Origin: JALXCG01 sp026991065 [NCBI: Gemmatimonadota bacterium]
GTDB taxonomy: Bacteria > GCA-2686955
NCBI GenBank assembly: GCA_026991065.1
Contig: JALXCG010000531.1
Coordinates: 1 to 5,338, forward strand
DNA length: 5,338 nucleotides
Direction: 5' to 3'
Position 1 is the stretch's first letter. Every line of letters begins with the position of its first letter. The notes under the pieces were generated by a model that saw only the letters and a program-made list of their open reading frames with translations, ran no database searches and was not told the DNA's origin. Made by a program: the position numbers and the translations under genes. Positions 1 through 5,338 of this stretch are shown here, piece by piece.

Positions 1-296
1 CAATGGTGCAGGGGCTGATGGCCGCCTTCTCCGACACGCTGCGGGTCCGGCGCGATGCCGACATCGCCAAACTCGCCAAACTCTACAACTCCATGAAGCC
101 ATCGGACGCCGCCCGCGTACTCAACGGCCTTGATTCTCATCTCGCGGCGGAAGTTTTGGCACGCCTGAAACCCAGGCAAAGTGCGCGCATCCTGGCGGCA
201 CTCGACTCTCCGCGGGCAGTGGAACTCTCCAACCTACTCTCCGGTGCACCGCTGCCAACAGATCCAGTCGGCAAGGAGGTCAGCGATGGCCGTTGA
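1..296 (+). CDS. MotE/YlxF-like flagellar protein, C-terminal part (5' truncated by window edge)
   Basis: This is the 3' end of a gene that begins outside the window. The frame is open to the left edge, and the first complete codon, at base 3, happens to be ATG. Nothing marks that ATG as a real start. The visible 97 residues form short amphipathic helices in the MgtE_N/MotE style: LAKLYNSMKPSDAARVLNGL (about residues 24-43), then a repeat-like LAAEVLARLKPRQSARILAAL and a closing helix with SPRAVELSNLL. Known family members (B. subtilis YlxF, alphaproteobacterial MotE) carry an N-terminal membrane helix and a coiled coil, which here would lie upstream. MotE is a periplasmic chaperone of the MotC stator protein in rhizobia; in other lineages the role is unclear. 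The position directly before fliK matches the fla/che operon of B. subtilis. The gene overlaps fliK by 11 nt and contains its ribosome binding site. The family call is good; the exact role is open. Confidence 0.8.
   Translation, partial: MVQGLMAAFSDTLRVRRDADIAKLAKLYNSMKPSDAARVLNGLDSHLAAEVLARLKPRQSARILAALDSPRAVELSNLLSGAPLPTDPVGKEVSDGR
273..280 (+). promoter_or_regulatory. Strong ribosome binding site setting the fliK start
   Basis: AAGGAGGT lies 5 nt before the ATG at 286 and matches the anti-Shine-Dalgarno sequence almost perfectly. It sits inside the coding end of the upstream MotE-like gene. It favours ATG 286 over the in-frame GTG at 181, which would give 35 extra residues and has no comparable site. 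Confidence 0.85.
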
Positions 297-1866
297 TTGG
301 ATCTCCCCCCAAGAGCCAGGCAAGCGCACTCGGCAATCGGTGAGTTCCGTTGTGACAGAGCCAACGGATGATGCCGCGCCGCCCTTTGGCGCCATCATGA
401 TCGCCATGCTGCATCGCGACGAAGCCCCCCGCGCGCAAAGTGGCACCCCAATGGTCACGGAGAGTGAAACGGACCGGCCAGCAGCGGTGCCCTCGGCCTC
501 TGCGGAACGTACTGAAGCAATGGCGACAGTCAGCGCCGGCGGCTCCCAAGGTGCGACAGCGGAACCCGGTGTTCAGGCATCGATCGTGAAACATGCACCC
601 GTGACGAGCGGTTCCCAAGCGTCAAGAGAGCTGGAAAGCGGGTCGGAGGCTACGCCCGACATCGGTTCTGCAGGTGCCAAGGCTGCCGGTCACGCCCCGA
701 ATCCGTCCATGCGCTCAACCATACCGGATCTGTCCAGCGGGCCTCCGCCGACAGAAAAAACAACCGCTGCTGCACCGATTCCCCCTTCCCCATCTCTCGG
801 GCGCACCCAGGCCGCTGCAACCGCAAGCGTCACTTCACCTCCGTCAGCAGTGCCAGCCACCGAGGCCCTCTTGGCCTCCACTCTGGCCTCGGTTACCGAG
901 ACTCCTTCAAGCTTTGAAGTCACACGGCTTCTTGGCATGAACCCCGGCGCGCCAGTGTCCGGCCCGGAACCCGCTGATTCCGGACCGGTTCCGCCCGTGC
1001 CGCCCCACCCCGCGGCCGCGGCCACACCCGCCAACCCGATCTCCTTGAACACTTCGCCCGCTCCCCATGCCCCAGCCGCGACTCCAAGAGCGACCGAACC
1101 GTCGATGGTCACACCCACCGCTCTTGCTGCCCCGGCAGTGACCACCCCACCGGCGACGCCTGAGGTCGTTCCGCCTGACTCAGAGTTCGCATCCAGGGCA
1201 GTCGATTCCCAACCGGCGGACGTCTCGCCAGCAGCATCGGCCGCCGCCACGCCAACAGCACCGGACGATGCTTCGCCCAGCGCCGACCGTTCGGCTGAAG
1301 AAGGTGCGCCTGACACAACTTCCGCCAACCTTGTCCCGCCGCTCCAAGAGAACGATGGTGCCGCGCTACCGCGGCAGCAGACCGCCCATCATCAAACCAC
1401 CCCCACACTCTTCGGTGCTACCTCCCACACCGCTCCATCCCGACCGCCAAACGGCGCAGTCCCAATGATCGAACTGCTCACAGAGTTGACGCGGCGCGCC
1501 AACCTGCGAGTCCTATCCCAGGGACGGCAGGTTCGCCTGCAACTTGAGCCGCATGATCTCGGCCGCCTGCGGATGGCGCTGGAGAACGACGCCGACGGGC
1601 GCATCGTGGCCCATGTCCAGGTAGAAACCGAAGCGGCCCGCGTGGCGGTCGAATCCCGTCTTGGTGCGCTGGGAGCCGCGCTCAGTGCCAACGGGTTTTC
1701 CCTGGCTGACCTACAAGTATCGGTCGGGCAGCGGGAATCCGATCCAGCGTCCGATTTCACCCCCGAAACGTCGAATACCGACAGCGAAACCGAGGAGCGC
1801 GCGCCCCTCCTGACCGACCGCCCTCCGACGACAGTCGCCCGGGGACGGTTGGACATCGTTGTCTAG
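286..1866 (+). CDS. fliK: Flagellar hook-length control protein FliK
   Basis: A 526-residue protein starting at ATG 286 (MAVDWISPQEPGK), chosen for its strong Shine-Dalgarno site. FliK is a secreted ruler that measures the hook and, through its C-terminal domain, makes FlhB switch export from rod/hook to filament substrates. Residues about 30-390 are low-complexity, rich in Pro, Ala, Thr and Ser, and likely extended, as expected for a ruler. Residues about 405-480 form the Flg_hook domain (PF02120 type). Its hallmark is LEPHDLGRLRMAL (420-432), followed by a V-x-V strand (HVQVETE), a helix with two leucine-rich turns (ESRLGALGAALSANG), and a final LQVSV strand. A polar acidic tail of about 45 residues ends in LDIVV. 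There is no cysteine and only one tryptophan (residue 5). Salmonella FliK has about 405 residues, so this one is long. It overlaps the upstream gene by 11 nt and lies 21 nt before flgD. The ruler half is too degenerate for homology, so the call rests on the C-terminal domain and the neighbours. Confidence 0.93.
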   Translation: MAVDWISPQEPGKRTRQSVSSVVTEPTDDAAPPFGAIMIAMLHRDEAPRAQSGTPMVTESETDRPAAVPSASAERTEAMATVSAGGSQGATAEPGVQASIVKHAPVTSGSQASRELESGSEATPDIGSAGAKAAGHAPNPSMRSTIPDLSSGPPPTEKTTAAAPIPPSPSLGRTQAAATASVTSPPSAVPATEALLASTLASVTETPSSFEVTRLLGMNPGAPVSGPEPADSGPVPPVPPHPAAAATPANPISLNTSPAPHAPAATPRATEPSMVTPTALAAPAVTTPPATPEVVPPDSEFASRAVDSQPADVSPAASAAATPTAPDDASPSADRSAEEGAPDTTSANLVPPLQENDGAALPRQQTAHHQTTPTLFGATSHTAPSRPPNGAVPMIELLTELTRRANLRVLSQGRQVRLQLEPHDLGRLRMALENDADGRIVAHVQVETEAARVAVESRLGALGAALSANGFSLADLQVSVGQRESDPASDFTPETSNTDSETEERAPLLTDRPPTTVARGRLDIVV

Positions 1867-2604: not shown

Positions 2605-2991
2605 ATGGACCCAATCACCCTGGCGCGGATCAGCGGCGTAGGTACTGCGCCCTCGGTCTCACCGTCCCGGCACCCGAGCCCACCTCCCGGGCAAGTTCCC
2701 GGCGACTTCCAGGATGCACTGCAAGCGCAACTCGAACGACCCGTGCGTTTTTCCGCGCACGCTTCGGCTCGCCTGCGAAGCCGCGGAATTCACCTGACAC
2801 CCGCCGATCGCAGCGCTCTGAGCGCCGGCGTCGACGCCGCGGCAGCCAAGGGCGCGCGCGACGCGGTGCTGCTCCAGGCAGACCGCGCTTTCGTCGTCAA
2901 TGTCCCAAACCGAGTGGTCATCACCGCTCACACCAACGCGGAAGCGCGCGCCAGAGTCTACTCCGGCATCGACGCCGCAGTGGTTCTCTAG
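2605..2991 (+). CDS. Conserved flagellar operon protein, TIGR02530/PF12611 (Flagellar_put) type
   Basis: A 128-residue protein of a family found between flgD and flgE in many non-enteric flagellar operons; I know of no established function. After a short N-terminal segment and a Pro/Ser-rich linker (about residues 17-33), the conserved domain spans about 47-128. It begins with FSAHASARLRSRGIHL (49-64), the family's S-x-H-A-x-x-R-x-x-x-R-x-I motif. A helix with AAAAKGARDAVLLQ follows, then strands AFVVNV and NRVVITA (102-108), ending in VYSGIDAAVVL, which matches the usual F/Y-x-x-I-D-x-A-V end. There is no signal peptide, membrane segment or cysteine. The protein is net basic (14 Arg/Lys, 10 Asp/Glu), unlike the very acidic FlgD and FlgE on either side, which hints at a cytoplasmic rather than structural role. 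It starts 3 nt after flgD and is followed by the 224-nt flgE leader. The family assignment is confident from the motifs; the function is not. Confidence 0.88.
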   Translation: MDPITLARISGVGTAPSVSPSRHPSPPPGQVPGDFQDALQAQLERPVRFSAHASARLRSRGIHLTPADRSALSAGVDAAAAKGARDAVLLQADRAFVVNVPNRVVITAHTNAEARARVYSGIDAAVVL

Positions 2992-3215: not shown

Positions 3216-5338
3216 ATGATGCGTTCTCTCTATAGTGGAGTCTCCGGTCTGCGCAATCACCAGACGCGAATGGATGTTATTGGCAACAACATCGCCAACA
3301 TCAACACCTTTGGGTTCAAGTCCGGGCGCGTGGCCTTCAGCGATATCATGTCGCAGACCTTGCGCAACGGGACCTCTCCCAGAGGTGTCCGTGGCGGTGT
3401 GAACCCGATTCAGGTGGGGCTGGGCGTCGGTGTCGCATCAGTCGGTGAACGGTTTCTGCAGGGCTCAATCATGTCGACCGGAATGACCACCGATCTGGCG
3501 ATTCAGGGCGACGCTTTCTTCGTGGTCTCTGACGGCACCGCCGACTACTACACCCGCACCAACATGTTCCAGTTCGACGGTTCCGGCGCTTTGGTCGACC
3601 CGGCCACAGGCTTGGTTCTGCAGGGAACCATGGCCGACGACAATGGCGACCTCATCGCCCCGGGAAGCTTGGGCGACATCTCTCTGCCCTTTGGTCAGGA
3701 ATACCCCGCCAAGGCAACCTCGGAAGTGACCTGGAACGGTAATCTGGACGCTTCGATTGCGCCACTGGAGTCGATTCTGCAATCGTCACGGGTGCTTGCG
3801 ATTCCCGAAGATACCGACAATCTGTTTGACATGTACAATGGGAGCGGAATTGCTCTCGACATCATGGAAGGGGATCAAGTCTATTTCCGCTCCCTGGCCA
3901 GTGATGGCACGACAATCGACCAACTCTACAATGGCGCCCACACCTCTCTTGGACTCCAGTATGGTGATTCACTGGTCATCTCCGGCCTGCTGGACGACAT
4001 CGAATCTACCCAGCTCGACCCAGCCAACTTCCTTTCCAACGAGATCACCTTCAGCATCGACGTGACCGACCAGCAGGCGGGTACCGGTCCCGACTCCTCC
4101 ACCGTCACCATTCCGCCCCTGAGCGGCAAAACCGTTACCGAAGCGGTGGACGCCATCGTCCAGGCCATCAAAGAGTCCGGCGCAGCCGTCAAAGTGGTCG
4201 ACGAGGGCAGCACCTATCGCATCGAACCGCTCAACCAGACAACCAAACTGGAGATCATCGCACCACCGACCGAGATCGACACGATCGGTCTCGACCCGGC
4301 GGGAGAAGTCACCAATCCGCAGTTCACCGAGGTGAACTTCGGCACGGGTCAAGGCGAAATCGAGACTCTTGGCGACCTGGTCGCCGTAATCCAGGCGGAC
4401 CTCAACACAACCGCGGGCTTTGCCGGCAATGAGATCAGCGTCATTCAGGAGGATGACGGCTCACTGCGCATTCAGAATGACCACGCAACCGACGATATCC
4501 ACGTCGAAATCCGTACCTCCAGCGATAACGCCACCTTTGCCAACGCGATCCGGGAACTCCAGGGAGAAGTCGATGCAGGGGACCGAACCAGCCGTTCCGA
4601 TCGATTCACTTTTCAGAGCAGTTTCATCGCGGGAGATGACTTCAGCGACCTCAATGACCTCGCCGGACGCATCGAGCGCGCCATGCAGGAAGTGAGTGCT
4701 ACAGCCGCGGTAACCGTGACGAGCAATGGTAAGCTGGACTACGGTAATGTCAGTGGAGCCGGCTCCTACACGATCCAGGACATGGAGATCACCATCGAGC
4801 CCACCGGCCGCAGCGTGTTTGAGCGTGCCCTGGGACTGGACAACGAAGATCTCGAAGTCAACGGCTCGCTCCTTTCCGACCGTTTCCTGCGAACCGCGAT
4901 CGGTGATGACGATCTGACCGACCTCTACTCGACCAGTGGCGAATACCTCGATTTGAACACGGGCGACACGATCGACATCAGTGCTACCGTCGGCGGCGTC
5001 GAACTGACTCCGGTTTCAGTTCGTGTCGGCACCGAAGTCACGACCTACGATGATCTCGCCAAGACCATTGAAACCACGCTCAACATCTCTAGTGGTGATG
5101 GGGTAACCATTCAGAGCGATGGCTCACTCTATATCGACGGTGACCCCGGGGAAGAGGACTCCCTGGACTCACTGGCGATTACCGAAGCGGGCAATGCCGT
5201 GCTCGGCGACGCACTTGCATTCAACACTCTGCAAGAAGCTGAAAACGCTGTCGCGGTGAGTTCGGTGATCGCCTATGACACACTCGGTAATGCACATACG
5301 GTGGTCCTTACTTTCAACAAGAGCGAAATCGCCAACTA
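3216..5338 (+). CDS. flgE: Flagellar hook protein FlgE, enlarged, 3' end beyond the window
   Basis: The frame is open from ATG 3216 to the right edge: 707 full codons with no stop. FlgE is exported and polymerises into the hook, the universal joint between rod and filament. The N-terminal rod/hook domain (PF00460 type) reads MMRSLYSGVSGLRNHQTRMD, then IGNNIANINTFGFKSGRVAF. The D1 core follows with TDLAIQGDAFFVV (92-104), YYTRTNMFQFD (111-121) and WNGNLDAS (173-180). The conserved return segment VIAYDTLGNAHTVVLTFNKS appears only at 684-703; the visible sequence ends soon after it. In E. coli FlgE (402 residues in all) these two landmarks are a few tens of residues apart; here about 500 lie between. 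That insert contains four helix-hairpin units like the flagellin/hook IN motif (PF07196 type) and three copies of an L-Y...G-D motif. The visible part has about nine lysines, many Asp/Glu and no cysteine. It lies 224 nt after the TIGR02530-type gene, behind its own ribosome binding site, so it may have a separate promoter. A C-terminal Flg_bbr_C domain is expected beyond the edge. Confidence 0.95.
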   Translation, partial: MMRSLYSGVSGLRNHQTRMDVIGNNIANINTFGFKSGRVAFSDIMSQTLRNGTSPRGVRGGVNPIQVGLGVGVASVGERFLQGSIMSTGMTTDLAIQGDAFFVVSDGTADYYTRTNMFQFDGSGALVDPATGLVLQGTMADDNGDLIAPGSLGDISLPFGQEYPAKATSEVTWNGNLDASIAPLESILQSSRVLAIPEDTDNLFDMYNGSGIALDIMEGDQVYFRSLASDGTTIDQLYNGAHTSLGLQYGDSLVISGLLDDIESTQLDPANFLSNEITFSIDVTDQQAGTGPDSSTVTIPPLSGKTVTEAVDAIVQAIKESGAAVKVVDEGSTYRIEPLNQTTKLEIIAPPTEIDTIGLDPAGEVTNPQFTEVNFGTGQGEIETLGDLVAVIQADLNTTAGFAGNEISVIQEDDGSLRIQNDHATDDIHVEIRTSSDNATFANAIRELQGEVDAGDRTSRSDRFTFQSSFIAGDDFSDLNDLAGRIERAMQEVSATAAVTVTSNGKLDYGNVSGAGSYTIQDMEITIEPTGRSVFERALGLDNEDLEVNGSLLSDRFLRTAIGDDDLTDLYSTSGEYLDLNTGDTIDISATVGGVELTPVSVRVGTEVTTYDDLAKTIETTLNISSGDGVTIQSDGSLYIDGDPGEEDSLDSLAITEAGNAVLGDALAFNTLQEAENAVAVSSVIAYDTLGNAHTVVLTFNKSEIAN
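3822..3986 (+). repeat. Two L-Y...L...GD motif copies at the start of the FlgE insert
   Basis: FlgE residues 203-226 (from LFDMYNGSGIALDIMEGDQV) and 237-257 (LYNGAHTSLGLQYGDSLVIS plus G) share the pattern aromatic-x2-to-3-G-x-x-L-x-L/I-x-x-G-D-x-hydrophobic. The third copy lies about 310 residues later at 4923-4982. The similarity is at protein level; codons differ, so the duplication is old or the unit is a recurring structural element. Confidence 0.55.
4131..4232 (+). repeat. Hook-IN-like unit 1 in FlgE
   Basis: FlgE residues 306-339: a helix (TVTEAVDAIVQAIKESG) followed by a hairpin (AVKVVDEGSTYRIEPL). The pattern of T-x2-4-L/V-x2-I-x3-I, then a strand, a D/E-G turn and a strand resembles the flagellin hook IN motif. 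It is the most divergent of the four copies. Confidence 0.5.
4362..4478 (+). repeat. Hook-IN-like unit 2 in FlgE
   Basis: FlgE residues 383-421: helix ETLGDLVAVIQADLN, a short loop, then the hairpin ISVIQEDDGSLRIQN. This is the clearest copy. The GSL turn is coded by GGCTCACTG, and GGCTCACT recurs in unit 4. Confidence 0.6.
4638..4748 (+). repeat. Hook-IN-like unit 3 in FlgE
   Basis: FlgE residues 475-511: helix DFSDLNDLAGRIERAMQEV, then hairpin AVTVTSNGKLDYGN. N-G replaces D-G at the turn. It follows a more variable stretch containing FTFQSSF. Confidence 0.5.
4923..4982 (+). repeat. Third L-Y...GD motif copy in FlgE
   Basis: FlgE residues 570-589, LYSTSGEYLDLNTGDTIDIS, match the two copies at 3822-3986. 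It directly precedes IN-like unit 4, so motif and unit together may form one composite module. Confidence 0.55.
5040..5144 (+). repeat. Hook-IN-like unit 4 in FlgE
   Basis: FlgE residues 609-643: helix TTYDDLAKTIETTLN, then hairpin GVTIQSDGSLYIDGD. It matches unit 2 closely in protein pattern (L-x3-I-x3-L-N, then I-Q-x1-2-D-G-S-L-x-I). It lies about 40 residues before the hook core resumes. Confidence 0.6.

What the first reader, a model, noticed from the sequence alone, without database searches (positions are those of the whole stretch)
3757..5264. Very large insert in the outer part of the hook protein
The two landmarks of the FlgE core, LDAS (177-180) and VIAYDTLGN (684-692), are normally separated by a few tens of residues in the E. 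coli type. Here about 500 acidic, Asp/Thr/Ser-rich residues lie between them, so the full protein should exceed about 850 residues. Long FlgE proteins are known, for example in Campylobacter, where extra outer domains contact neighbouring subunits. The insert probably forms added surface domains that stiffen or shield the hook, or change its diameter.
Basis: partly seen in the sequence, partly recalled or inferred. Interest (0 to 1): 0.6.

Follow-up and report, generated by a model that had tools for sequence, protein, structure and literature searches.

The report
Oversized hook protein built from modules
This bacterium's flagellar hook protein carries about 500 extra residues that look like a stack of repeated surface modules, of the kind also seen in flagellar cap and filament proteins; large hook proteins are common, but growth by whole modules may be a testable rule for many of them.

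Summary
FlgE starts at 3216 and runs off the contig; its end lies on contig C551. The full protein is 911 aa, with 503 residues between LDAS and VIAYDTLGN. A sister genome encodes a co-linear 903-aa protein, so it is no assembly artefact. Size alone is not remarkable: 16 of 106 other genomes that I tabulated have a frame of at least 911 aa at FlgE, and one phylum reaches 1459.

The insert sits where Campylobacter D3-D4 sits. It has no confident Pfam or PDB sequence match, but it folds confidently in prediction (pLDDT 84.7). Its best solved matches are Campylobacter FlgE (Z 12.4 over 140 residues) and FliD D2 (Z 9.9). It contains three clear, probably four, copies of a beta-alpha-beta-beta-beta module that profile comparison links to the Flagellin_IN motif. 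FlgE-trained profiles find it in some FliD, flagellin and hook-associated-type proteins.

Among 58 FlgE inserts, most carry the module and its number rises with length, but 13-14 lack it, and two very large FlgE of other genomes show none. The likely role, extra subunit contacts, a thicker hook and shielding, is inferred from Campylobacter.

The parts
3216..5338 (+). flgE, 5' 707 codons of 911; the rest is on contig C551
3216..3755 (+). FlgE residues 1-180: D0, L-stretch and N-terminal half of D1, up to the LDAS landmark
   Evidence: Pfam Flg_bb_rod and LlgE_F_G_D1; 74% identical to G001
3756..5264 (+). Outer insert, FlgE residues 181-683
3804..4217 (+). Module M1 (about residues 197-334): a hairpin part like the start of M4, then a predicted beta-alpha-beta-beta unit. 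Weakest copy
   Evidence: hhalign of residues 197-262 to M4 95%, E 3e-8; the second half alone gives about 1% or less against the others; HMM 274-334 E 0.11; helix 307-321 in the model
4278..4544 (+). Module M2 (residues 355-443)
   Evidence: E 4e-10; held-out HMM E 7e-6
4578..4826 (+). Module M3 (residues 455-537)
   Evidence: E 3e-15; held-out HMM E 3e-7
4962..5204 (+). Module M4 (residues 583-663), next to the hook core in sequence
   Evidence: E 7e-20; held-out HMM E 3e-18
5265..5338 (+). Re-entry into the FlgE D2 core (VIAYDTLGN...), cut by the contig end
   Evidence: weak FlgE_D2 match at 668-704 (E 0.16); continues on C551
1888..2601 (+). flgD, hook cap/assembly protein
2605..2991 (+). 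TIGR02530 'flg_new' flagellar protein, 78.2 bits against a cut-off of 83.2
181..1866 (+). fliK-like hook-length control ORF (true start not determined)
   Evidence: Pfam Flg_hook E 2e-12

Best explanation
This is an ordinary flgE, the only one found in an 84%-complete genome. Its outer region, inserted into domain D2, has been enlarged to about 500 residues by stacking three to four copies of an IN-type beta-alpha-beta-beta-beta module. The copies are read as nested surface domains outside D2. By analogy with Campylobacter D3-D4 they should widen the hook and add contacts within and between protofilaments, making it stiffer and more break-resistant, while the faster-changing part (M1b-M2) faces the medium. 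Shown: gene, insert, module copies, conservation in the sister genome; predicted: fold. Inferred: nesting, contacts, diameter, stiffness.
For: Full-length gene and co-linear sister protein. Predicted fold, pLDDT 84.7. Best solved matches: C. jejuni FlgE, Z 12.4, 2.4 A, 140 residues; FliD D2, Z 9.9, 2.5 A, 108 residues; H. pylori FlgE2, Z 9.5, 178 residues but 7.1 A. Foldseek also ranks the two C. jejuni FlgE entries first, E 2e-4. Internal repeats: M1a-M4 95%, M3-M4 96%, M2-M4 79%, M2-M3 72%. The iterated module HMM hits 44 of 58 inserts of 90 aa or more at E <= 0.01, against 2 of 58 reversed, 0 of 58 shuffled and 0 of 58 cores of the same proteins; the seed HMM 45, 3, 0 and 0; at E <= 0.1 the iterated HMM 45, 5, 0 and 1. 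An HMM trained without the window, its sister and the Deferribacterales-type and L130 rows still finds M2, M3 and M4. Identity to G001 falls from 74% and 70% in the core parts to 63% (M3), 55% (M4) and 41-43% (M1b, M2). In C. jejuni the insert lies at the same point in D2, and deleting D3-D4 gives very poor motility and broken flagella (PMC5097172 section 11).
Against: No sequence profile reaches a solved flagellar structure. Flagellin_IN does not score on the window's own insert; 4 of 26 relatives match it, best E 0.0075, below its cut-off, while an unrelated-looking family (OTU1_UBXL) matches 6 of 26, best E 9e-4. M1 shows no profile likeness to M2 or M3. Parts of the tip have low confidence (model 81-89, 160-187). 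13-14 of 58 inserts lack the module, five of them 243-423 aa long, and the module profile finds nothing at FlgE in G069 and G383, whose FlgE frames exceed 1100 aa, so it is not the only way to enlarge FlgE. No assembly was modelled.
Confidence: 0.75

Rival explanations
1. The insert is mainly a variable surface coat (shielding against phage, grazers or immunity, or a binding surface) with little mechanical role. Its length drifts by gain and loss of modules.
For: The middle of the insert changes fastest. FlgE frames that hold both ends vary from 805 to 1459 aa within one phylum. Campylobacter D3-D4 variation was proposed to be antigenic (PMC5097172 passages).
Against: The architecture is kept whole between two genera at 52% identity over the insert. 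The nearest solved case has a mechanical phenotype on deletion.
Confidence: 0.3
2. The length is an assembly artefact joining two genes.
For: The assembly is fragmented (902 contigs) and flgE lies across a contig end.
Against: One open frame; 177-nt overlap with the continuing contig; co-linear sister protein split at a different place; co-linear 951-959-aa homologues in genomes of another lineage.
Confidence: 0.01
3. The insert is the Campylobacter D3-D4 pair itself, inherited vertically or by transfer.
For: Same insertion point; top structural match; L023, a close relative of the C. jejuni protein (E 2e-96), has two modules by HMMs that were not trained on it.
Against: The structural match covers about 140 of 503 residues. 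The profiles of the insert and of the modules do not find C. jejuni FlgE by sequence. The number of modules differs.
Confidence: 0.15

Closest known systems
Campylobacter jejuni FlgE with outer domains D3 and D4 (PDB 5jxl, 5az4)
   Same: Insertion in D2 at the same place; large protein (851-864 aa); top structural match.
   Different: The window's insert is longer (503 aa between landmarks, against about 386 aa for D3-D4 as given in PMC5069557). Only part of it superposes, and no sequence match was found.
Flagellin_IN motif (PF07196) of flagellins and FliD
   Same: The pooled FlgE module profile aligns to nine IN rows over the Pfam cut-off (91.7%, E 8e-7; 50 column shuffles at most 0.4%, reversed 1.5%). 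The two profiles land on the same stretches in FliD of G191, a flagellin of G097 (FlgE profile only E 0.035) and a hook-associated-type protein of G417. Flagellin_IN's best hits in G080 (E 0.02) and G075 (E 0.5) fall on FlgE modules.
   Different: The module is longer (89 model positions against 55), and FlgE copies score below the Pfam cut-off.
951-959-aa FlgE of Deferribacterales-type genomes (L049, L143, L144)
   Same: Co-linear over all 911 residues; four module hits, one of them partial (L143, L144).
   Different: Insert about 520 aa; low identity over the aligned insert.
About 680-aa FlgE of KSB1-type genomes (L042-L044, L046)
   Same: Core and M3+M4 are homologous.
   Different: Lack most of M1 and all of M2.

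Membership tests
FlgE hook protein | N-terminal rod/hook motif and D1 | tested here: met
   Pfam Flg_bb_rod E 1e-10 and LlgE_F_G_D1 E 6e-7; NCBIfam FlgE models hit the N-terminal part, below full-length cut-offs as the protein is cut
FlgE hook protein | FlgE/F/G C-terminal domain | tested here: met
   Flg_bbr_C on C551, E 7e-17, in the frame that continues flgE
FlgE hook protein | Setting among hook genes | tested here: met
   fliK-flgD-flg_new upstream by models; on C551, frames that read like MotA, MotB, FliL, FliM and FliN follow (these names are by eye, not from a model)
Campylobacter-type D3-D4 hook | Large insert in D2 at the same site | tested here: met
   Landmarks at 177-180 and 684-692, against Campylobacter residues about 193-618
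Campylobacter-type D3-D4 hook | Same outer fold | tested here: inconclusive
   Z 12.4 over 140 residues only; tip poorly modelled
Campylobacter-type D3-D4 hook | Extra contacts between subunits; wider hook | not testable with these tools
   needs a hook structure
Flagellin_IN (PF07196) | Pfam score above the gathering cut-off | tested here: not met
   No hit on the window insert; best E among 26 members 0.0075. So it is described as IN-like, not filed as a member
Flagellin_IN (PF07196) | Profile-level kinship | tested here: met
   91.7% for the pooled module profile with nine IN rows over the cut-off, against at most 0.4% in 50 shuffles; single modules M3 68%, M4 58%, M1a, M1b and M2 under 1%. 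So it is met for the pooled module, M3 and M4, not for M1 and M2 alone

The most novel reading that the evidence does not exclude
Much of the outer surface of the bacterial flagellum is built from one exchangeable module. FlgE, FliD, flagellin and junction proteins draw on the same IN-type unit, and in many phyla hook thickness is set by how many copies FlgE carries, so that module number would predict hook diameter and stiffness from sequence. (Lowered from 0.3 to 0.25 on re-checking: two FlgE frames of over 1100 aa show no module.)
Probability: 0.25. Interest if true: 0.7.

Novelty: new variant of a known kind. Interest (0 to 1): 0.42.

Why it matters
FlgE outer regions have been described as hypervariable in size and structure (PMC5069557 abstract). 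If the size of many of them comes from counting copies of one module, hook dimensions become predictable from genomes for those lineages. The mechanical role seen in Campylobacter could then be tested as a graded series, one module at a time.

Tried and rejected
Rejected: assembly artefact. Rejected: exceptional size. The lengths are stop-to-stop frames; some are cut by contig ends or may be FlgG-like (223-287 aa), and they can include upstream codons.

No result: insert against Pfam and PDB by sequence; pooled module profile against PDB, where the best rows are chance-like and no flagellar protein appears. BLAST self-comparison of the insert showed no internal repeat; only profiles did. The IN link of single modules depends on the rows used: with 14 IN rows, five of them under the Pfam cut-off, M3 93% and M4 86%; with the nine over it, 68% and 58%. 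Sub-threshold Flagellin_IN hits are common (10 of 14 control genomes ring at E <= 10), so the G075 hit (E 0.5) proves little; the modules of G080 and G075 FlgE were also among the rows of the FlgE profile. The second structure job (residues 262-446) was run without an alignment, a poor choice of mine, and gave pLDDT 54.6, so the tip was not searched alone.

The sample of FlgE inserts is biased: loci were fetched by likeness to the window, related genomes are not independent, and the Spearman value of 0.81 is descriptive. The rise with length is a trend with overlaps: with the held-out HMM the ranges are 134-347 aa for one module, 263-520 for two and 374-520 for three, and it misses M2 in G001. 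Of the papers I saw abstracts, passages or single sections, none whole. For large outer domains, modules or the IN motif in FlgE I searched the library and saw no title or abstract opening on IN modules in FlgE; four of these listings were cut (20 of 129, 20 of 51, 20 of 104, 10 of 26), and many journals are not in that library.

Full report
What is there. The window is the whole of contig C531 of a 902-contig, 84%-complete genome. Its plus strand carries a fliK-like frame, flgD, a TIGR02530-type gene and flgE. flgE starts at 3216 and runs off the end. Contig C551 overlaps the window by 177 nt with one mismatch and carries the last part, including the FlgE/F/G C-terminal domain. The joined protein has 911 residues and no cysteine. 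Between LDAS (177-180) and VIAYDTLGN (684-692) lie 503 residues, rich in Asp, Thr and Ser. The one other genome held for this phylum, G001, encodes a co-linear protein of 903 residues, split between contigs at another point. The long insert is therefore real.

How unusual. Not very in size. In 386 genomes sampled around the window, 156 have a match to the FlgE N-terminus at E <= 1e-15, while 18 of 386 match the insert at E <= 1e-3. Among 106 other genomes for which I tabulated the best FlgE-like frame, 16 have a frame of at least 911 aa (biases are told under Tried and rejected). In the phylum of G112, 47 of 50 genomes matched its FlgE at E <= 1e-20, and frames that hold both ends range from 805 to 1459 aa. 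Two frames, of 1451 and 1373 aa, carry four Pfam domains of FlgE. G112 is taken to be Deferribacterales-like because a named locus, L049, has the same 951-aa co-linear FlgE.

What the insert is made of. It has no confident match by sequence in Pfam or the PDB. Predicted with an alignment of 26 rows, it folds with mean pLDDT 84.7. Four helices, at residues 307-321, 385-398, 479-491 and 611-621, are each followed by two or three strands. Profile comparison of the parts shows internal repeats: M1a to M4 95%, M3 to M4 96%, M2 to M4 79%, M2 to M3 72%; M1 to M2 and M1 to M3 gave about 1% or less. A module HMM finds M2, M3 and M4 at E 4e-10, 3e-15 and 7e-20, and M1 only at 0.11. Trained without the window, its sister, the Deferribacterales-type rows and L130, it still finds M2, M3 and M4 at 7e-6, 3e-7 and 3e-18. 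Three copies are therefore firm and the fourth is probable.

A rise by modules. I took 92 FlgE frames with both landmarks, 82 of them distinct, 58 with an insert of 90 aa or more. With the iterated HMM the module occurs in 44 of 58 at E <= 0.01, against 2 of 58 reversed inserts, 0 of 58 shuffled inserts and 0 of 58 core parts of the same proteins; at E <= 0.1 the figures are 45, 5, 0 and 1. Typically inserts of 134-155 aa have one module, 263-320 aa two, 373-429 aa three, and 495-520 aa three or four. There are exceptions. Thirteen inserts have none at E <= 0.1: eight of 100-145 aa and five of 243-423 aa. Two of 227-229 aa have one, two in the two-module range show one, and one of 374 aa shows four with a marginal hit. 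With the held-out HMM the length ranges overlap. And in 14 genomes searched with the module profile, G069 and G383, whose FlgE frames exceed 1100 aa, show no hit at FlgE. The module is thus one common way, not the only way, to enlarge FlgE.

Kinship with other flagellar proteins. The predicted insert matches C. jejuni FlgE (Z 12.4, 2.4 A, 140 residues), FliD D2 (Z 9.9, 2.5 A, 108 residues) and, at a level that may mean only a common arrangement, flagellin FliC (Z 6.8, 3.2 A, 100 residues). The pooled FlgE module profile aligns with nine Flagellin_IN rows at 91.7%, against at most 0.4% in 50 column shuffles. The FlgE-trained profile finds FliD of G191 (E 1e-10), a second FlgE-type protein of G097 (E 2e-8), a 1450-aa frame of G417 (E 5e-6) and a flagellin of G383 (E 2e-4). 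Reversed copies of these proteins give no hit at E < 0.1. FliD, the flagellin and the second FlgE-type protein are named by Pfam. The 1450-aa frame is called hook-associated only from its C-terminal letters, by recall. In FliD of G191, in the 1450-aa frame and weakly in a flagellin of G097, the FlgE profile and Flagellin_IN fall on the same stretch. Flagellin_IN is the domain most often found in flagellin hypervariable regions in one survey (PMC5595980, table seen in passages). Against this, the window's own insert gives no Flagellin_IN hit, M1 and M2 alone show no IN kinship, and no PDB chain of a flagellar protein is found by sequence.

How it probably works. In C. jejuni, D3 and D4 sit at the same point of D2 and add contacts within and between protofilaments; the hook is 280 A wide, against 180 A in Salmonella (PMC5097172 passages; PMC5069557 passages). 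Removing them leaves cells very poorly motile, with more than 90% of cells showing short flagellar stubs (section 11). I infer the same for this protein, with M4 and M3 nearer the core and M1 and M2 towards the tip. The conservation gradient fits: 74% and 70% in the core parts, 55-63% in M4 and M3, 41-43% in M1b and M2. None of the mechanical steps is shown here.

Verdict. The object is a large-hook FlgE of a known kind, with a module arrangement that the solved ones match only in part. The wider pattern, hook proteins growing by a module shared with cap and filament proteins, is the part worth following.

Noticed in passing
L213:551-4903 (G417) and G419:C83: FlgE frames of 1451 and 1459 aa, about 540 residues longer than the window's protein; the 1451-aa one was confirmed as FlgE by four Pfam domains, the other only by similarity at both ends.
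   Followed up: partly
L212:1128-3611 (G191 FliD), L211:946-3486 (G383 flagellin), L210:2006-5500 (G417): Proteins other than FlgE that carry modules found by the FlgE-trained profile.
   Followed up: partly
FlgE modules in general: Weak, sub-threshold hits of modules and model often go to what I recall as ubiquitin-like folds (Pfam OTU1_UBXL in 6 of 26 members, PB1, CIDE-N; PDB plexin RBD complex, doublecortin). It may reflect a beta-grasp-like shape or chance.
   Followed up: no
PDB 7kh1 (phage XM1 baseplate entry): A chain of this entry matches the model (Z 7.7, 3.3 A, 110 residues) and is a weak hit of the module profile (E 0.09).
   Followed up: no
window 3-296: Frame upstream of fliK with an MgtE_N match (E 1e-8); possibly a MotE-like flagellar protein (recalled).
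   Followed up: no
L051, L060, L031, L032, L095; FlgE of G069 and G383: FlgE inserts of 243-423 aa without any module hit, and two FlgE frames of over 1100 aa without one: large hooks apparently built from other domains.
   Followed up: no
window 5161-5338 and C551 end: The two contigs overlap by 177 nt with one T/C difference that leaves the protein unchanged, perhaps strain variation that broke the assembly.
   Followed up: partly
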